From the IMG/VR virus record IMGVR_UViG_3300025781_000078, positions 1 through 23,383 of that record: DNA of 23,383 bases. One strand, written 5' to 3'. Numbering within the stretch: position 1 is the first letter of the stretch; every line of letters begins with the position of its first letter. Under the pieces are notes generated by a model. It was not told where the DNA came from. It searched no databases and saw nothing but the letters and a program-made list of their open reading frames with translations. Shown piece by piece: positions 3,703 to 18,375 of the stretch. Source of the DNA: a virus. The translations under genes and the position numbers were made by a program.

Positions 3703-4832
3703 GCTCACATCAACACTGGGACACTCTGCGGGCCTGTGCAGTTGGCATCAGCTATCCGCCAGAATGGTACAGCTACATCACCAACAGCAAGGTGCGCAAC
3801 GTCATGGAGCGCATAGCCACAGAGACCGAGGAAGACTATCAGAAGCTCATAGCCAAGCTGCGAGAATTCAACGTTGACGTGGTGCGGCCTGTGCTGCCCA
3901 ACAGCATGGAAGAGCGCCTCTTGCCCAGCGGCCGTTATGCTATACCTCCCATGGTGCCACGAGACCACATGGCCATGGTTGGAGATCGCTTCTTCGCTGG
4001 CCGCCAGCAGCAGACCAAGAAGTTCGTGGGTGCTCCTTGCGATTACATGGCCATAGTTGACTATGTGCAAGACAAGGGCAACACCGTAGTCTGGGACAAT
4101 AGGATCAATGATGCCATGCTGACTCGCGTGGGCAAGGATCTCTACTTTGGCACTACCAACAGACAGAACTTCCAGCATACCTTCTGGGAGACCTGGGAGC
4201 TTGACCGCGAACCAAACTGGCCAAAGAAAGCTCCGTGGGAATGGGAAACGCTAACGCTGACCCAGCAGGACAAGTTCATACGCAACTATACTCGCCGCAT
4301 CACCAACCTATTTCCCGATTATCGCTGCCATATAGTGGAAACAGATGGACATCTGGATGGATGGTTTTGTCCGGTATGTCCCGGGCTGATAATCAGCCTC
4401 TGCGACTGCCAGACATACGAGCGCACATTCCCTGGTTGGGAAGTCATATATCTGCCAGATCAAAGCTGGCACAGCGTGCGTCCATTCATGGACCTCAAGC
4501 GCAAGAACAAGGGCAAGTGGTGGGTGCCAGGCGAGGAATTAAACGACGATTTCACCGATTATGTGGAGCACTGGCTGGGACACTGGGTAGGATACGTTGA
4601 GGAGACCGTGTTTGACGTGAACATGCTGGTAATAGATCGCAAGAACGTGCTGTGCAACAACTACAATAAGGAAGTGTTTGATGCGCTGGATCGCTATGGT
4701 ATCACGCCTCACATCGTCAACTTTAGGCATCGCTACTTCTGGGATGGCGGATTGCATTGCATAACCTGCGACCTCGATCGCGACGGTGAACGGCACGATT
4801 GGTTTCCCGAACGATCACAGGATGCCGTCTAA
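3696..4832 (+). CDS. Amidinotransferase-family enzyme (glycine amidinotransferase-like)
   Basis: The 378 residues carry the hallmarks of the guanidino-group-modifying family, which moves an amidino group from arginine to an amine or hydrolyses it. The catalytic triad is visible: D148 in RVGKDLYFG, H219 in TDGHLDGWF, and nucleophile C355 in DGGLHCITCDL, the last two close to GATM's MHIDAT and GGFHCWTCD. VGDRFF (95-100) is also typical. GGAG lies six bases before ATG 3696; an ATG at 3690 is possible. The real substrate cannot be read from sequence. Isoleucine is encoded by ATA ten times out of 17. The gene ends 18 bases inside the convergent glycosyltransferase gene. Confidence 0.85.
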   Translation: MLSSHQHWDTLRACAVGISYPPEWYSYITNSKVRNVMERIATETEEDYQKLIAKLREFNVDVVRPVLPNSMEERLLPSGRYAIPPMVPRDHMAMVGDRFFAGRQQQTKKFVGAPCDYMAIVDYVQDKGNTVVWDNRINDAMLTRVGKDLYFGTTNRQNFQHTFWETWELDREPNWPKKAPWEWETLTLTQQDKFIRNYTRRITNLFPDYRCHIVETDGHLDGWFCPVCPGLIISLCDCQTYERTFPGWEVIYLPDQSWHSVRPFMDLKRKNKGKWWVPGEELNDDFTDYVEHWLGHWVGYVEETVFDVNMLVIDRKNVLCNNYNKEVFDALDRYGITPHIVNFRHRYFWDGGLHCITCDLDRDGERHDWFPERSQDAV

Positions 4833-5834
4833 CAGGCTCTGCTCGTCCTCATGGTCAACTAGATTACCGCGGAACTGTCGCCACGCTGCTGGCCAATTGT
4901 AACGAGCCTTTGCAGCGTCGGCGCAGGCATCGCGATCCAAGCACAGTGCAGCTTCAATTGCTGTGTTGATGTCATCATGCATCACACCAGTCTGGGGTAG
5001 CAACACGTCTACAGGTCCCTGCACAGGATATGCTGCTACAGGTGTGCCCAGCACTTGGCTCTCGATCATCACCAGGCCAAACGTGTCTGACCTGCTGGTG
5101 AATACCATGCAGTCTGCTTTGATATACTCGTTGGCTAGGTCGGCACCCCGCAGCATGCCCAGATACTGTACCCAGGGATACTGTCGCATCAGCGTCTGCA
5201 GGTAAGGCCCGTCGCCTACCATCACCAGATCATACTGGTCCCTGTCCAGCTGACAGAACACATCCAGATTCTTTTCCTTGCTGACTCTGCCCACGCTTAG
5301 CAATCTGGGTTTGGCATTGGTCGTGTGGGTGATGTAGGGCCTGAGATTATCTAGATCCACACCTCTGCCAAACAGAACAACTTCGGCTCCTATGCCTTGA
5401 TCGATCAGTTCTTGCTGTATGCTAGGTGTAGGCACCATGACCTTGCCGTGCTGGTGGAACCATCTCACGAATCTCCAGGTCCAAGCCTCTGGTATCTTCC
5501 AGAAGTGCTTGAAGTATTTGGGCCACTGAGTTTGATAAGCCGTGGTGTAGCTCCAGCGGCGAAAGCTGATGCGTGCCATCAGTCCCAGAGGACCTTCCGT
5601 TGATATGTGCAGATGATCGGGGTTGAAACTGCGCACCATTCCTCGCACACCCCAGGGCCAACTGAGTCGCACTTCTGGATAACCCGGTGCCGGACGATTG
5701 GGAAACAGTCCAGGGTGTATGACCATGACTTCCCAGCCATCGGATTCAGCTTCCCTGACCAAGTTGGTCAGCGTGGTGACCACGCCATTGACCTGATCCC
5801 ATGCATCAGTTACGATGCAGAGCTTGGTTGCCAT
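4815..5834 (-). CDS. GT4-family glycosyltransferase, Agt/SqdX-like
   Basis: A 339-residue retaining glycosyltransferase of GT-B fold. The N-terminal domain opens with LCIVTDAWDQVNGVVTTL and has LHISTEGPLGLMAR near 95. The C-terminal donor domain has LLSVGRVSKEKN, VMVGDGPYL and the E-x7-E region in SDTFGLVMIESQVLGTPVA. This pattern matches the bacterial lipid glycosyltransferases (Agt, SqdX-like) that add sugar to diacylglycerol and usually sit beside a PlcP-like phosphoesterase, exactly as here. The start at 5834 overlaps the upstream gene by 25 bases and has GGGAG upstream. Activity on diacylglycerol is inference from family and neighbour; another phage role such as LPS or DNA glycosylation is the alternative. 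Confidence 0.88.
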   Translation of the reverse strand: MATKLCIVTDAWDQVNGVVTTLTNLVREAESDGWEVMVIHPGLFPNRPAPGYPEVRLSWPWGVRGMVRSFNPDHLHISTEGPLGLMARISFRRWSYTTAYQTQWPKYFKHFWKIPEAWTWRFVRWFHQHGKVMVPTPSIQQELIDQGIGAEVVLFGRGVDLDNLRPYITHTTNAKPRLLSVGRVSKEKNLDVFCQLDRDQYDLVMVGDGPYLQTLMRQYPWVQYLGMLRGADLANEYIKADCMVFTSRSDTFGLVMIESQVLGTPVAAYPVQGPVDVLLPQTGVMHDDINTAIEAALCLDRDACADAAKARYNWPAAWRQFRGNLVDHEDEQSLLDGIL

Positions 5835-6553
5835 CGTATGATCTCCCAGCGGCCATCTTCATGTTCAACCAATGCTGTGCAGCTCTCTACCCAGTCGCCA
5901 CAGTTCATGTAGGTTATGCCATCCACATCTCTGATGTTGGCATGATGTATGTGTCCGCAGATGATGCCGTCGCAACCGTGCGTGCGAGCATATCTGCTGA
6001 GATTTTCCTCGTAGTCGCCTATGAAGTTCACTGCCTGTTTGACCTTGTACTTGGCCCAAGCTGACAGGCTCCAAGGGCGAAGGTTCAGCAGTCTCCTAGC
6101 GCCGCTGACCACCACGTTCAGACCTATCAACATGTCGTAGGCCCAGCTGCCAAGATGTGCCAGCCATTTGGCATGTTTGATCACCACGTCAAACTGATCA
6201 CCATGCATGACCTTGTAGCGGCGACCATCAGCACCTCTGTAAACGCAGGTGTTGATCAGCTTGATGTTGCCAAAGTCGTGATCGCCAAAGCTGCGCAGAA
6301 ACTCGTCATGGTTGCCTGGCAAATACGTCACGTTAGTGCCCTTGCGGGCCTGCCTCAGTATCTTCTGTATCACGTCATTGTGCACCTGTGGCCACAGGAA
6401 GCTCTTGCTCATGGCCCAGCCGTCTATGATATCTCCAACCAGGAACAGGTTCTTGGTCTCGAAGGTTTTGAAGAACTCTAACAGCGCATCTGCGTTGCTC
6501 ATCTTGGTACCCAGATGAACGTCACTGATCCAAACGCTGCGATATTCCATCAT
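5810..6553 (-). CDS. Calcineurin-like metallophosphoesterase, PlcP/LpxH-like
   Basis: The 247 residues carry every metal-binding motif of the family: SDVHLG (D11, H13), GDIIDGW (D41), GNHDE (N81, H82), HGDQFD (H117) and CGHIHHA (H201, H203). Proteins with the ending NCGDWVESCTALVEH are usually annotated UDP-2,3-diacylglucosamine diphosphatase. The alphaproteobacterial members beside a GT4 gene include PlcP, a phospholipase C that turns phospholipid into diacylglycerol during phosphate starvation. The start ATG overlaps the stop of the nucleotidyltransferase gene (ATGA) and the end overlaps the glycosyltransferase, so the pair is co-translated. LpxH activity on lipid A precursor is the alternative. 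Confidence 0.88.
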   Translation of the reverse strand: MMEYRSVWISDVHLGTKMSNADALLEFFKTFETKNLFLVGDIIDGWAMSKSFLWPQVHNDVIQKILRQARKGTNVTYLPGNHDEFLRSFGDHDFGNIKLINTCVYRGADGRRYKVMHGDQFDVVIKHAKWLAHLGSWAYDMLIGLNVVVSGARRLLNLRPWSLSAWAKYKVKQAVNFIGDYEENLSRYARTHGCDGIICGHIHHANIRDVDGITYMNCGDWVESCTALVEHEDGRWEIIRWQPSSAS

Positions 6554-7578
6554 AGGGCAAACAGTCCTTTTACCATCTCTAGTCCAGTTAGAACCTTCTG
6601 GCGGTCAGCTTCTGCTCGTGCCTTGGCTTCAGGAGTCTCTGCCTTGGCACGCTTGGCGCTGTTGACGTCGCCCTGGGCCTTGCCCTCGTACCGCTGCATG
6701 AACTTGTCCAAGAAGTCGTTGGCATCAACAAAGCCAGCTAGGTCTTTCTTGCCATACATGCCGTTGAGCTCAAAGCTGCGTGCCAAGCCCTTGATGGCAT
6801 TGACCATCTTTGCGATCTTCACGTCATCCGGATCGTTGCCGCGGAAGCTCTTGAGCAGAGGATCCAGCTTGGCTGTGCTGGCATCGCGACCAGTTATCTG
6901 TTCATATTCATTTGCGAAGATGTCGTAGATGAAATTGCGAGGATCTGTGCTGATGGTCTTTATCACAGTTCCCTTCTGCTTGCTGAAAGGCACATGCTCA
7001 CCGTCGATGGTCTTGAGCTGCACACCTGCATGTTGGATGCTCATGTCCAACAGTTCGCCTAGCACGCTGTAGAGATTGCCAGCTAACAGGCCCTTGATGC
7101 CCCGTTCAGGCGTGGCTCGTGCAGCGCCCCAGGCACGCAGGTGCGGGGGATGCCACATGAAGTCTACCTGCACGTACTGATCAGGCCCAATCTGGAATAT
7201 GGGATGTCCTGGCTTGCTCTCGCCAGGATGTATGTAATCTGGATGCGTGCTCTTGATGAACTCGTCGGCCAGACGGTTCCAGTGCATGGTGTATTGATAA
7301 TAGCTGGCTCCTGGCACGTCCGGCGCTATCATCTGTAGGTCAATGTCACCGTAGATCTTACCAGGATCTTCCTTGCTGTCAATCTCGTGATAGGTGCCAG
7401 ATCCAGTTGGTCTGCCCAGCTCTACTGGACCCTGGTTGGTACCACTAAGCCAACGATTGAAATCGTTCACGAACTGCTGTACCTTGGACAGCGTGATCTT
7501 GACCGTGGCAGGTTTTATGACCGTGCCCTGCGTCACTGTGGTGTCCCAGCCACCTTCGAGGAGTTCTTGAATGCGCAT
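6550..7578 (-). CDS. Polymerase-beta-fold nucleotidyltransferase-like protein
   Basis: A 342-residue cytoplasmic protein. The nucleotidyltransferase signature appears as TGSGTY (58-63) followed by YGDIDLQM with D78 and D80, and a third acidic position D139 in YVQVDFMW. These are the GS, DxD and D of the polymerase-beta superfamily, which transfers NMP to protein, RNA or small molecules. The C-terminal third (LLKSFRGNDPDDVKIAKMV on) is helical and ends in an Ala/Lys/Glu-rich stretch. No ribosome binding site is obvious before ATG 7578; a strong hairpin lies 24-51 bases upstream. It heads the operon containing the phosphoesterase and glycosyltransferase. Target unknown. Confidence 0.75.
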   Translation of the reverse strand: MRIQELLEGGWDTTVTQGTVIKPATVKITLSKVQQFVNDFNRWLSGTNQGPVELGRPTGSGTYHEIDSKEDPGKIYGDIDLQMIAPDVPGASYYQYTMHWNRLADEFIKSTHPDYIHPGESKPGHPIFQIGPDQYVQVDFMWHPPHLRAWGAARATPERGIKGLLAGNLYSVLGELLDMSIQHAGVQLKTIDGEHVPFSKQKGTVIKTISTDPRNFIYDIFANEYEQITGRDASTAKLDPLLKSFRGNDPDDVKIAKMVNAIKGLARSFELNGMYGKKDLAGFVDANDFLDKFMQRYEGKAQGDVNSAKRAKAETPEAKARAEADRQKVLTGLEMVKGLFAL

Positions 7579-7646: not shown

Positions 7647-8855
7647 TTATTTTACAGCGGGTGCTGCCACAGCCATGGTCGGAGCCAAGCGCATCAGAGC
7701 TTCGATCATGCCGGGAGTTACTACTAGTGGTAATCCATGCGTCTCCATGCCCTTGCCCATGCCCTCTTGGACCTTGATGGTTGCAACCTGCTGGAGGATC
7801 GGGATGGCCTGCGCCAGCTTGTCAGCTTCATACTTGCGATTGACCGCAGCTTGGATCTCTGGATCAAAAGCAAAGGTGTCAGCCCAACCAATGAAGTTCA
7901 GGGTGATGCCCACGCTGGCAAAGTATTCCTTGGTGCCCTTTTCAATGGCTTCCATCTCCTTGACCATGTCTGCGTTGGCTTCGTCAAAGGTGCGCTTGCC
8001 AATCTCGTTACACACCAAGGTCTGCACCTTCTTGCGGCCCACGTCATCCATGACCTCACTGAGGCTGCGACCGTAATACACAGATGTGAAGATCACCTGC
8101 GGATCGCTGGGATTGCCCTTGGGCGGGATCACGCCAAAGTTGTAGAGGAACTTGGCAGCGTTGTCCTCGCTCACGCTGGTGCCTATGCTGACGCCAGCAC
8201 GGATGTTGAGACCTTCCTTGCTCTGGCACGGGAAGCTCTCGTCTTTGCTGCTGGTACCACGGTTTGATTGCGCTACCCATTCTCGGCTGTACGGTGTGCG
8301 ATCCACAATGTATAGCCGCCCTGTGGGCACGTAGAAGTCCCAGCCCATGAAGCCACCAGATCCGCCCAATTTGGCATGCGGCACCACGAAACGCTTGCTG
8401 GCAATCTTGCGCTCGTTATAATATGTCTCACTCTCGAACTGCGCCTGAGTGTCCTTGTTGGCACCAGTGTCTGGTACCCAGAAGGCGCTTTGGTTTGGCA
8501 AGATGGTGTAGGCTTCCGTCTTGTCGTTGCCGTCAGCATAGGCCCATGCTCGATCAGTGGTTACTGTAGACAGTGCCAAGATGACTGCGCCCACTGCACC
8601 CAGGCTCTTGATCAAGCTCTTGATAGGCACGAACCAGATAGCCACCAATGCCAATAGCAACAGCCCTGACAACAGATAGCTGAGCCCGCCCATTGCGCCA
8701 AACAGCAAGCTGGTGGTCACCGCTGCTGTGTCGCTGTTGAGAAACTGCTGACCAGCTGCTTCTCCCTGTACCAAGGTGCTCACGGGATTGAACACCTGTC
8801 TACTCATGCCATACGCAACAAATGCTAGTACTGATAGGATGATCCTGGTGATCAT
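7647..8855 (-). CDS. SPFH/band-7 (prohibitin-like) membrane protein
   Basis: 402 residues with three hydrophobic segments at roughly 4-17, 47-77 and 82-99, then a soluble domain of about 300 residues. That domain looks like an SPFH/prohibitin domain: VPTGRLYIVDRTPYSREW, a beta-strand region GLNIRAGVSIGTSV, then the helical part ending AAVNRKYEADKLAQAIPIL. Band-7 proteins form large membrane-anchored rings that organise membrane proteases or lipid domains, and related proteins occur in T4-like phages of aquatic hosts. GAGGAG lies before ATG 8855. It is preceded by a terminator, so it may have its own promoter in the 71-base gap. The phage role is unknown. Confidence 0.8.
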   Translation of the reverse strand: MITRIILSVLAFVAYGMSRQVFNPVSTLVQGEAAGQQFLNSDTAAVTTSLLFGAMGGLSYLLSGLLLLALVAIWFVPIKSLIKSLGAVGAVILALSTVTTDRAWAYADGNDKTEAYTILPNQSAFWVPDTGANKDTQAQFESETYYNERKIASKRFVVPHAKLGGSGGFMGWDFYVPTGRLYIVDRTPYSREWVAQSNRGTSSKDESFPCQSKEGLNIRAGVSIGTSVSEDNAAKFLYNFGVIPPKGNPSDPQVIFTSVYYGRSLSEVMDDVGRKKVQTLVCNEIGKRTFDEANADMVKEMEAIEKGTKEYFASVGITLNFIGWADTFAFDPEIQAAVNRKYEADKLAQAIPILQQVATIKVQEGMGKGMETHGLPLVVTPGMIEALMRLAPTMAVAAPAVK

Positions 8856-14280: not shown

Positions 14281-14446
14281 CCAGAGATTTTGTAACAATC
14301 TGCTACACTATTTGTATCTATTTGCACCGCACAATCTTGCTCTTTTGGTCGTTAACTATTAAATATAGCTAGCCAGTCATGGCAAAATGGTTAACCAAGC
14401 CAGTCCGAGGATCCAAAAGGGCAGGCTACAACATGAAGGAAATACT
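14281..14446 (+). promoter_or_regulatory. AT-rich upstream region of the outer-membrane protein gene
   Basis: This gap separates the divergent phosphatase and barrel genes. It has no convincing ORF or RNA gene. TTAAATA at 14359-14365 loosely resembles the T4 late promoter box TATAAATA, and would give a leader of about 75 bases. TTGCTC about 17 bases before TAAATA is another weak possibility. The ribosome binding site AAGGAAATACT lies directly before ATG 14447. Confidence 0.35.
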
Positions 14447-15094
14447 ATGAAGATCATCACAACAGCAATGGTTGCCTTGTTGGCAACTGCTTCGGTCGCA
14501 TTGGCTACCGATCTACCAAACAAGAAGGCAACACCAGCTGCTCCTGCCGCTGCAGTTGCAGATACCGCTGCAGCTAGCTCAGACAGCATTTCTGCCAGCT
14601 ATGGCCAGGAATTTGATCCTGCTGGATACAGCAGCAAGCAGCACGACACCTATGGCGTGACCTACACCCACACGATGGGCCAGTTCACCATCGGTGGCGC
14701 AGCTGGTACGACCCAGTACAGCGACAACACCCTCAAGCAGACCATCGAAGCACAGGCTGGCTACAAGCTGCCTAGCATGTACGGCGTGACTGTGAGCGGT
14801 AAGGTTGGTCTCGGTGAGCGCTTCCAGAGCGCTGGTAACTTTGCTTACTATGCACTCTATGGCAATGCTGACTATGCCATCAACGACACCATCACTTGGA
14901 ATGCAGTTCAGTATCGCTATCGCAATGCGTTTGACACTTCAAACAACTTTGAAACTCATCGCATCGGCACTGGCGTGACCTTCAACGTCACCAAGAACGT
15001 TGCACTGAACGCAGCTGTGTATCGCGATTACGGCAGCGGCTTCACCACTGCTAGCGACAACGGCGTGCAGGTTGGTGCTACCGTTAAGTTCTGA
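14447..15094 (+). CDS. Outer-membrane beta-barrel protein with signal peptide
   Basis: ATG 14447 with AAGGA upstream opens MKIITTAMVALLATASVALA, a clear Sec signal peptide with cleavage after ALA. An Ala/Pro-rich linker of about 30 residues follows. After that the protein alternates polar and hydrophobic residues with many aromatic girdle positions (DTYGVTYTHTMGQFTIGGA and on) and ends GVQVGATVKF. A terminal phenylalanine is the BAM-recognition signal of outer-membrane barrels. The mature length of about 195 suggests 8 strands. It is plus-strand, isolated, and has its own terminator. Possible roles are receptor masking, superinfection exclusion or envelope change; none is proven. Confidence 0.82.
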   Translation: MKIITTAMVALLATASVALATDLPNKKATPAAPAAAVADTAAASSDSISASYGQEFDPAGYSSKQHDTYGVTYTHTMGQFTIGGAAGTTQYSDNTLKQTIEAQAGYKLPSMYGVTVSGKVGLGERFQSAGNFAYYALYGNADYAINDTITWNAVQYRYRNAFDTSNNFETHRIGTGVTFNVTKNVALNAAVYRDYGSGFTTASDNGVQVGATVKF

Positions 15095-17442: not shown

Positions 17443-18375
17443 CTACACTAGTATAACTCGATGCCCATGCTTTTGCAGCCTGAAATTGCCGATTCGCATC
17501 TCATTGCGGCTGTCGCTGTTTGCATTCAGCAGTCCTCGAGCAAAATCTTCAATGTGATCAGTGCTGTAGGAGTTGATGTTGTTTTCTTCTAACACATGCA
17601 TCAGCAGGTTTTTTAACCTGGTGTGGCTCAGACAACACATCTTGGGCCAATCCAAGCTGCCATCATCTCGCGCAACGTTAGCTAGATCTATCCTTGCTAG
17701 ATCACGTAATAGCTCCAAGCTCTCGTTGACAATGCCAGCACTTCTGACGATGTTTTCTAGAGCTAGGGGGTTCCTGCGCTTGATGTCCGGCATGAGATCA
17801 TTGCGGATCCAGTTGCGATCATACTTGATATCTCTGTTGCTGGGATCTTCCACATATGGGATCTCGCAGATCTTGGCATAGGTGACGATCTCACGCTTGC
17901 TGAGCTCTAGCATGGGGCGGCACAGCAACACCTTGGGATCGTGCCAGCAGGGTGCATATTTCTCCATGCCCTTTAGGCCTCTGATACCGCTGCCGCGGAA
18001 CAGCTTCATCAGCACGGTCTCTGCTTGATCGTCTGCATGATGTGCCAGCACGATGGCTTCTGGGTCCATGCTGGCAAATGCGCTGTAGCGTGCTTCCCTG
18101 GCAGCATTCTCTAGGTTACCGTTGGGATTCACATTGACAGTGAAGGTGTAACCAGGGATGCCCATCTGCATGCATTGCTTGGCAGCAAATTCAGCCCAAG
18201 CGTCACTGTTAGCATTTATGTTGTGGTTGACTGTTACAACACTGAGATTACAACGAAATTTATTGAGATTCTGGCTGATTATATACAGCAATACCATGCT
18301 GTCTACACCGCCGCTGACACCGATCACGGTCTTGCGGGTGCCCAGACGTGCTGCTAGCTCATCTACATCAAACAT
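17443..18375 (-). CDS. tilS: tRNA(Ile)-lysidine synthetase
   Basis: TilS attaches lysine to C34 of the tRNA-Ile that carries a CAU anticodon, so it reads AUA instead of AUG. The PP-loop ATPase motif is VIGVSGGVDSM (SGGVDS at 21-26), and the family signature LAHHADDQAETVLMKLFRGSGIRGLKGM follows near 112-139. EDPSNRDIKYDRNWIRNDLMP is also typical. At 310 residues it lacks most of the C-terminal domain of E. coli TilS (432). The -10 box of its promoter ends six bases before the ATG and there is no ribosome binding site, so the mRNA should be leaderless. AUA is heavily used in neighbouring genes. TilS in a phage is uncommon. Confidence 0.93.
   Translation of the reverse strand: MFDVDELAARLGTRKTVIGVSGGVDSMVLLYIISQNLNKFRCNLSVVTVNHNINANSDAWAEFAAKQCMQMGIPGYTFTVNVNPNGNLENAAREARYSAFASMDPEAIVLAHHADDQAETVLMKLFRGSGIRGLKGMEKYAPCWHDPKVLLCRPMLELSKREIVTYAKICEIPYVEDPSNRDIKYDRNWIRNDLMPDIKRRNPLALENIVRSAGIVNESLELLRDLARIDLANVARDDGSLDWPKMCCLSHTRLKNLLMHVLEENNINSYSTDHIEDFARGLLNANSDSRNEMRIGNFRLQKHGHRVILV

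What the first reader, a model, noticed from the sequence alone, without database searches (positions are those of the whole stretch)
4815..6553. Phage-borne plcP-agt-like pair that could rebuild the host membrane from phospholipid to glycolipid
The metallophosphoesterase (5810-6553) and GT4 glycosyltransferase (4815-5834) overlap by 25 bases and keep the order of the alphaproteobacterial plcP-agt pair. There PlcP turns phospholipid into diacylglycerol and Agt adds a sugar during phosphate starvation. The protein motifs match those families (SDVHLG, GDWVESCTALVEH; VTDAWDQVNGVV, TEGPLGLMAR). In a phage the pair could release phosphate for DNA synthesis or change the envelope. That a phage carries both is the striking part.
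Basis: partly seen in the sequence, partly recalled or inferred. Interest (0 to 1): 0.85.

Follow-up and report, generated by a model that had tools for sequence, protein, structure and literature searches.

The report
Phage-carried PlcP–Agt membrane lipid remodelling pair
This phage, like many other phages from public viral metagenomes, carries the two adjacent genes that bacteria use to strip phosphate from membrane lipids and replace it with sugar, so infection itself may rebuild the host membrane and free phosphate; in this particular phage the sugar-adding enzyme has lost a normally invariant catalytic residue.

Summary
In detail: two overlapping minus-strand genes, a metallophosphoesterase (5810-6553) and a GT4 glycosyltransferase (4815-5834). 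By tree, HMM and a diagnostic residue, the phosphoesterase belongs to the PlcP family, not LpxH: GNHD in all 245 phage and bacterial PlcP-type proteins compared, GNRD in all 11 LpxH. It is 55% identical to Sinorhizobium PlcP and 50% to Pseudomonas PlcP, which are 48% identical to each other. The glycosyltransferase belongs to the Agt family (42% identical to P. aeruginosa Agt1). The pair is no one-off: in IMG/VR, 77 of 80 Agt-type phage genes lie downstream of a PlcP-type gene on the same strand; the other three sit at contig ends. Phage Agts form one clade and phage PlcPs two, nested among bacterial ones. Another phage group puts PlcP behind an unrelated GT2 glycosyltransferase, and PstS clusters near these genes. 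Caveat: in this window the Agt catalytic His (GTcp H104) is Gln, as in 0 of 123 other phage copies, so the second step may be lost or altered here, although the gene is under purifying selection. Function is inferred; no enzyme was assayed. No held paper reports plcP as a phage gene.

The parts
5810..6553 (-). PlcP-family metallophosphoesterase (247 aa)
   Evidence: Pfam Metallophos; in the PlcP family, not LpxH; all metal-site residues D11 H13 D41 N81 H82 H117 H201 H203 kept
4815..5834 (-). Agt-family GT4 glycosyltransferase (339 aa), with Gln101 in place of the catalytic His
   Evidence: Pfam GT4/GT1; groups with P. aeruginosa Agt1; GT-B fold model pLDDT 92; residue survey
5532..5534 (-). 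codon 101 (CAA, Gln) of the glycosyltransferase, at the place of GTcp His104
5810..5834 (-). 25-bp overlap of the two genes, suggesting translational coupling
   Evidence: relatives in viral contigs show overlaps or gaps of -134 to 225 bp in 70 of 77
6550..7578 (-). upstream gene of unknown function (342 aa), 4-bp overlap with the phosphoesterase; same position in L002 and L003
   Evidence: no Pfam or PHROG match

Best explanation
The two genes are a phage-carried plcP-agt lipid-remodelling module. In the family as a whole, the PlcP-type phosphoesterase cuts the head group of host glycerophospholipids to give diacylglycerol and a phosphorylated head group. The Agt-type GT4 enzyme then adds a sugar from a UDP-sugar to the diacylglycerol, so membrane area is kept while phosphorus is released. 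The most likely benefit is phosphorus for phage DNA when the host is P-limited, without diacylglycerol build-up damaging the membrane. Shown here: family membership by descent, intact metal site, intact sugar-donor motifs, conserved pairing and order, purifying selection. Inferred: substrates, products, timing and benefit. In the window phage itself the first step is predicted to be active, while the second is uncertain because the catalytic His is Gln.
For: PlcP family: 54.9% and 50.0% identity to S. meliloti and P. aeruginosa PlcP, which share 48.1%; tree split from LpxH with 100% support; GNHD versus GNRD perfect separation; in genomes that carry both genes the LpxH model gives 180-268 bits to LpxH and 40-58 to the PlcP-type gene; the window scores 34. 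Agt family: tree with Agt1; 12 of 13 residues surveyed from those shown essential in SAR11 GTcp are kept (PMC8231724). Pairing: 77 of 80 phage Agt genes have PlcP upstream on the same strand, 3 are at contig ends. Expression of a SAR11 Agt makes MGDG/GADG in E. coli, and SAR11 plcP restores a plcP mutant (PMC4796936). Separate pairing with a GT2 enzyme in another phage group. PstS within 3.5 kb in 5 of 7 large PstS-bearing contigs, chance about 1e-5 if contigs were independent. A PstS-family gene also next to plcP in the isolate Pelagibacter phage Mosig.
Against: Window GT lacks the catalytic His whose Ala mutant was inactive in GTcp (PMC8231724). No PstS in the window or in the 216-kb relative. 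No Pho box could be shown, but the scan also missed the P. aeruginosa locus for which a Pho box is reported, so it has no power. Cyanophage S-SRM01 carries a distant relative without the GT, so the phosphoesterase may have other uses. No biochemical data on any phage copy.
Confidence: 0.7

Rival explanations
1. Envelope change rather than phosphate supply. The pair (or the GT alone) makes glycolipids that alter receptors, block superinfecting phages or protect the infected cell, and phosphate release is a side effect.
For: Glycolipids made by PlcP-Agt protect P. aeruginosa from polymyxin (PMC8528852), and membrane lipid make-up alters phage attachment in Ruegeria (PMC9938194). The window also codes for a porin-like protein (by eye) and an SPFH/Band 7 protein. 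The window phage lacks PstS.
Against: PstS, ribonucleotide reductase and Thy1 genes lie close by in relatives, which fits nucleotide and phosphorus supply.
Confidence: 0.25
2. In this phage only the first step works. The GT has lost or changed activity through His to Gln, so PlcP makes diacylglycerol that host enzymes reuse.
For: Gln101 is unique: 123 of 123 other phage GTs and all Agt-type bacterial GTs have His, the only other exception being Arg in a distant bacterial copy. Many phages carry the PlcP gene with no Agt in the locus, including near-identical gene orders with and without it (L012-L014 versus L015-L020).
Against: The GT has dN/dS about 0.12-0.13, a tree branch no longer than its sisters', and all other catalytic residues. 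The change is one base and could be a recent mutation or an assembly error.
Confidence: 0.35
3. LpxH-like and LPS glycosyltransferase: the genes alter lipid A or LPS.
For: Public annotation calls these proteins UDP-2,3-diacylglucosamine diphosphatase, and the nearest solved folds are LpxH.
Against: Scores far below the LpxH cut-offs, GNHD not GNRD, separate clade. No PlcP structure is among the listed PDB matches, so LpxH is only the nearest solved relative.
Confidence: 0.04
4. Bacterial DNA mis-binned as virus.
For: IMG/VR can hold host stretches; several relatives lie on short contigs.
Against: T4-type RNA ligase and topoisomerase in the window; terminase matches of about 150 bits or more on at least 13 pair-bearing contigs; phage GTs form one clade apart from bacteria; a PlcP-type gene in an isolated pelagiphage.
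Confidence: 0.02

Closest known systems
Bacterial PlcP-Agt phospholipid-to-glycolipid remodelling (Agrobacterium, SAR11, Erythrobacter, P. aeruginosa PA3219-PA3218)
   Same: Both protein families, gene order plcP then agt on one strand with overlap or short gap, metal site, donor motifs, DAG-binding Arg and Trp
   Different: Carried by phages; phage Agts form their own clade and phage PlcPs two; no Pho box shown; the window copy has Gln for the catalytic His; some phages use a GT2 instead or no GT
Phage phosphorus-acquisition auxiliary metabolic genes (pstS, phoD, ugpQ, ppa and others; PMC10987575)
   Same: Bacterial phosphorus genes on phage genomes; pstS sits near the pair in some contigs; purifying selection
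   Different: Those take up or mineralise phosphate; this pair would draw it from the host's own membrane. No word beginning with phospholip, lipid or plc occurs in that paper's main text
lpxH listed as a viral auxiliary gene in two surveys (PMC10653327, PMC9611531)
   Same: May overlap with these genes, since PlcP proteins are annotated with the LpxH product name
   Different: Read there as LPS biosynthesis; sequence evidence here puts such proteins in the PlcP family (the survey sequences themselves were not tested)
LpxH (UDP-2,3-diacylglucosamine diphosphatase)
   Same: Metallophosphoesterase fold with a helical lid, acts on a membrane lipid
   Different: GNRD motif, separate clade, far higher scores to LpxH models

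Membership tests
PlcP (window 5810-6553) | Calcineurin-like metal-site motifs | tested here: met
   D11, H13, D41, N81, H82, D83, H117, H201, H203 all kept
PlcP (window 5810-6553) | Groups with characterised PlcPs, apart from LpxH | tested here: met
   Tree of 146 proteins with 11 LpxH as outgroup; 55% and 50% identity to S. meliloti and P. aeruginosa PlcP
PlcP (window 5810-6553) | GNHD rather than the GNRD of LpxH | tested here: met
   188 phage, 57 bacterial and 2 reference PlcPs His; 11 LpxH Arg
PlcP (window 5810-6553) | Next to a non-phosphorus lipid synthesis gene | tested here: met
   Agt-family gene directly downstream
PlcP (window 5810-6553) | Pho-box control | tested here: inconclusive
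   No site, but the P. aeruginosa control locus also failed
PlcP (window 5810-6553) | Phospholipase C activity giving diacylglycerol | not testable with these tools
   Needs an assay
Agt (window 4815-5834) | GT4 family, GT-B fold | tested here: met
   Pfam; model pLDDT 92, nearest folds BshA, MshA, PimB', PimA
Agt (window 4815-5834) | Falls in the Agt clade with Agt1 | tested here: met
   Support 95, away from other GT4s
Agt (window 4815-5834) | Catalytic dyad: His104 (GTcp numbering) | tested here: not met
   Gln101 in the window; His in all 123 other phage copies. The window protein is therefore called Agt-family by descent, not filed as a proven Agt enzyme
Agt (window 4815-5834) | Catalytic dyad: Asp256 (GTcp numbering) | tested here: met
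   D250
Agt (window 4815-5834) | UDP-sugar motifs and DAG-contact Arg163, Trp320 | tested here: met
   GRVSKEKN, FTSRSDTFG, R157, W314
Agt (window 4815-5834) | Makes glycosyl-diacylglycerol | not testable with these tools
   Needs expression and lipid analysis
LpxH | Reaches the LpxH model cut-off | tested here: not met
   34.1 bits against 190; 42.7 against 134
Phage auxiliary metabolic gene | Host-derived metabolic gene on a true phage genome | tested here: met
   Phage clades nested among bacteria; phage genes around

The most novel reading that the evidence does not exclude
Phages have long kept their own lineages of the whole phospholipid-to-glycolipid pathway, so that infection itself turns host membrane phospholipid into glycolipid whatever the host's own Pho state, making the host membrane a phosphorus store for phage DNA.
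Probability: 0.5. Interest if true: 0.82.

Novelty: new variant of a known kind. Interest (0 to 1): 0.68.

Why it matters
Membrane lipid remodelling is a major way in which bacteria save phosphorus in poor waters. If phages widely bring their own enzymes for it, infected cells would have a different membrane, phosphorus budget and nutritional value from uninfected ones, and lipid biomarkers of phosphorus stress could partly report infection. It also suggests that viral genes listed as lpxH in surveys may often be PlcP, which would move them from LPS synthesis to phosphorus economy. The claim is directly testable: expression in E. coli plus lipid mass spectrometry, and a cultured pelagiphage with a PlcP-type gene exists.

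Tried and rejected
LpxH plus LPS glycosyltransferase: rejected on tree, cut-offs and GNHD/GNRD. Chance adjacency: rejected, 77 of 80 relatives keep the order. Bacterial contamination: rejected. Pho-box scan with the E. coli consensus: 11 of 14 matches occur at random places and the P. aeruginosa control failed, so it says nothing. Search for sister contigs around codon 101 in viral contigs: no exact match, so I could not tell a fixed change from a lone mutation or an assembly error. tRNAs in the window: none, so no host clue there. The structure model of the phosphoesterase is weak in the helical lid (pLDDT about 50), so no claim is made about a lipid groove. phrog_2 (terminase) also rings in 11 of 14 control bacterial genomes, so only strong matches on long contigs were counted. 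Host not determined.

Full report
1. The observation. Pfam gives Metallophos for 5810-6553 and GT4/GT1 for 4815-5834. The phosphoesterase start overlaps the end of a 342-aa gene of unknown function (6550-7578) by 4 bp; that gene holds the same place in two related phage contigs, L002 and L003. The window is a virus record with a T4-type RNA ligase 1, a topoisomerase subunit and a GIY-YIG endonuclease.

2. Phosphoesterase: PlcP, not LpxH. In curated models it reaches 34 and 43 bits for LpxH where 190 and 134 are needed. As a control I scanned 12 bacterial genomes that carry a relative: LpxH scored 180-268 bits, the PlcP-type gene 40-58. A tree of 146 proteins puts LpxH on its own side of a fully supported long branch; the window lies with phage proteins inside the family that holds S. 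meliloti and P. aeruginosa PlcP. The S. meliloti reference (L095) lies beside an acyl-homoserine-lactone synthase and a LuxR regulator, which from my own knowledge is the sinI-sinR-SMc00171 region. The P. aeruginosa reference (L096) is followed by a glycosyltransferase, as PA3219-PA3218 is (PMC8528852). Window identities to them are 54.9% and 50.0%; they share 48.1%. The third motif reads GNHD in every one of 188 phage, 57 bacterial and 2 reference PlcPs compared (window included in neither count) and GNRD in all 11 LpxH. The model (pLDDT 82) matches LpxH best among solved folds.

3. Glycosyltransferase: Agt family. The tree of 113 proteins places it with P. aeruginosa Agt1 in a clade with support 95, apart from the other GT4 enzymes found near plcP; all 78 phage proteins form one group with support 94. 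Model pLDDT is 92 with a GT-B fold. Wei et al. (PMC8231724) showed by mutation which residues SAR11 GTcp needs. The window keeps Gly16, Gly82, Gly85, Arg163, Arg190, Lys195, Asp256, Thr257, Phe258, Gly259, Glu264 and Trp320 at the matching places, but has Gln for His104 (position match by motif alignment). All 123 other phage copies have His there, as do all Agt-type bacterial ones. The codon is CAA, one base from a His codon. The gene is otherwise under purifying selection, dN/dS about 0.12-0.13, and its branch is not long. The Gln may be an altered enzyme, a recent loss or an error; an exact-match search found no sister contig.

4. How common the pair is. Of the best 80 GT loci, 77 have a PlcP-type gene upstream on the same strand: 69 at 150 bp or less, one at 225 bp, seven with about 1 kb between. 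The other three begin at the contig end. Starting from PlcP instead, of 54 distinct types 23 have the GT4 and 10 more a GT2 glycosyltransferase. So phage Agt nearly always comes with PlcP, while phage PlcP often comes alone. At least 13 pair-bearing contigs also have a terminase match of about 150 bits or more.

5. Context. In one phage group plcP overlaps an upstream GT2 gene, behind ribonucleotide reductase and, in several, a PstS phosphate-binding protein over the curated cut-off. In L012-L020 plcP follows the T4-type clamp loader and regA genes, and agt is present in some and absent in others of otherwise matching order. PstS occurs in 7 of 28 large contigs tested, within 3.5 kb of these genes in 5 of the 7; the chance is about 1e-5 if contigs were independent, which related phages are not. 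Isolated Pelagibacter phage Mosig has a PlcP-type gene divergent from a PstS-family gene. The window and its 216-kb relative have no PstS.

6. Mechanism. In bacteria PlcP turns phospholipid to diacylglycerol and Agt adds glucose or glucuronate (PMC4796936, PMC8231724, PMC8528852). The same two-step route is the best-supported reading for the phage family. The repeated pairing with a glycosyltransferase, once GT4 and once GT2, argues that diacylglycerol is meant to be rebuilt into membrane lipid and not only that phosphate is cut off; the GT2's own acceptor is unknown. The benefit is inferred: phosphorus for DNA is favoured by the PstS, ribonucleotide reductase and Thy1 neighbours; envelope change is the main rival.

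7. Novelty. No held paper contains both PlcP and auxiliary metabolic gene. A broad survey of phage phosphorus genes does not mention phospholipids. Two surveys list lpxH as a viral gene, possibly the same genes under the LpxH name. Preprints and subscription papers were not searchable, so priority is not proven. I class it as a new variant of a known kind: a known bacterial pathway in a virus-specific form.

Noticed in passing
L022-L032, L219-L236 (e.g. L029:390-3897): A different phage group has ribonucleotide reductase, PstS, a GT2 glycosyltransferase and plcP in a tight run; the GT2 overlaps plcP by 4 bp. Possibly a second, independent phage lipid-remodelling module.
   Followed up: partly
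L012-L020: plcP sits after clamp loader (gp44, gp62) and regA genes; agt is present or absent in otherwise matching gene order, a natural insertion/deletion comparison.
   Followed up: partly
L006:6746-9696 and 17 of about 151 loci: CHASE2-domain proteins (one with a guanylate cyclase domain) and RimK-like ATP-grasp proteins lie beside the pair in several viral contigs; RimK sits between plcP and agt in some.
   Followed up: partly
window 7647-8855 (-): SPFH/Band 7-like membrane protein (just below Pfam's cut-off) two genes upstream of the pair.
   Followed up: no
window 14387-15094 (+): 235-aa protein with a signal-peptide-like start and beta-barrel-like sequence, porin-like by eye, no Pfam match; one of few plus-strand genes.
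   Followed up: no
window 3705-4832 (+): 375-aa protein, weak PHROG match of unknown function, relative in L002; its end recalls amidinotransferases (from memory, untested). It overlaps the 3' end of the GT gene convergently.
   Followed up: no
window 17443-18375 (-): TilS-like PP-loop protein (tRNA-Ile lysidine synthetase family) in a phage.
   Followed up: no
L098 (MT647606.1) 4903-6738: Cultured Pelagibacter phage Mosig has a PlcP-type gene (annotated as UDP-2,3-diacylglucosamine hydrolase) divergent from a PstS-family gene and without agt beside it: a ready test system.
   Followed up: partly
literature: PMC10653327, PMC9611531: Viral lpxH in gene surveys may be PlcP; the GNHD/GNRD residue would sort them.
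   Followed up: partly
L095 (CP090106.1): S. meliloti record labelled plasmid pSymB is 3.7 Mb and carries what looks like the chromosomal sin region, probably a labelling error.
   Followed up: no
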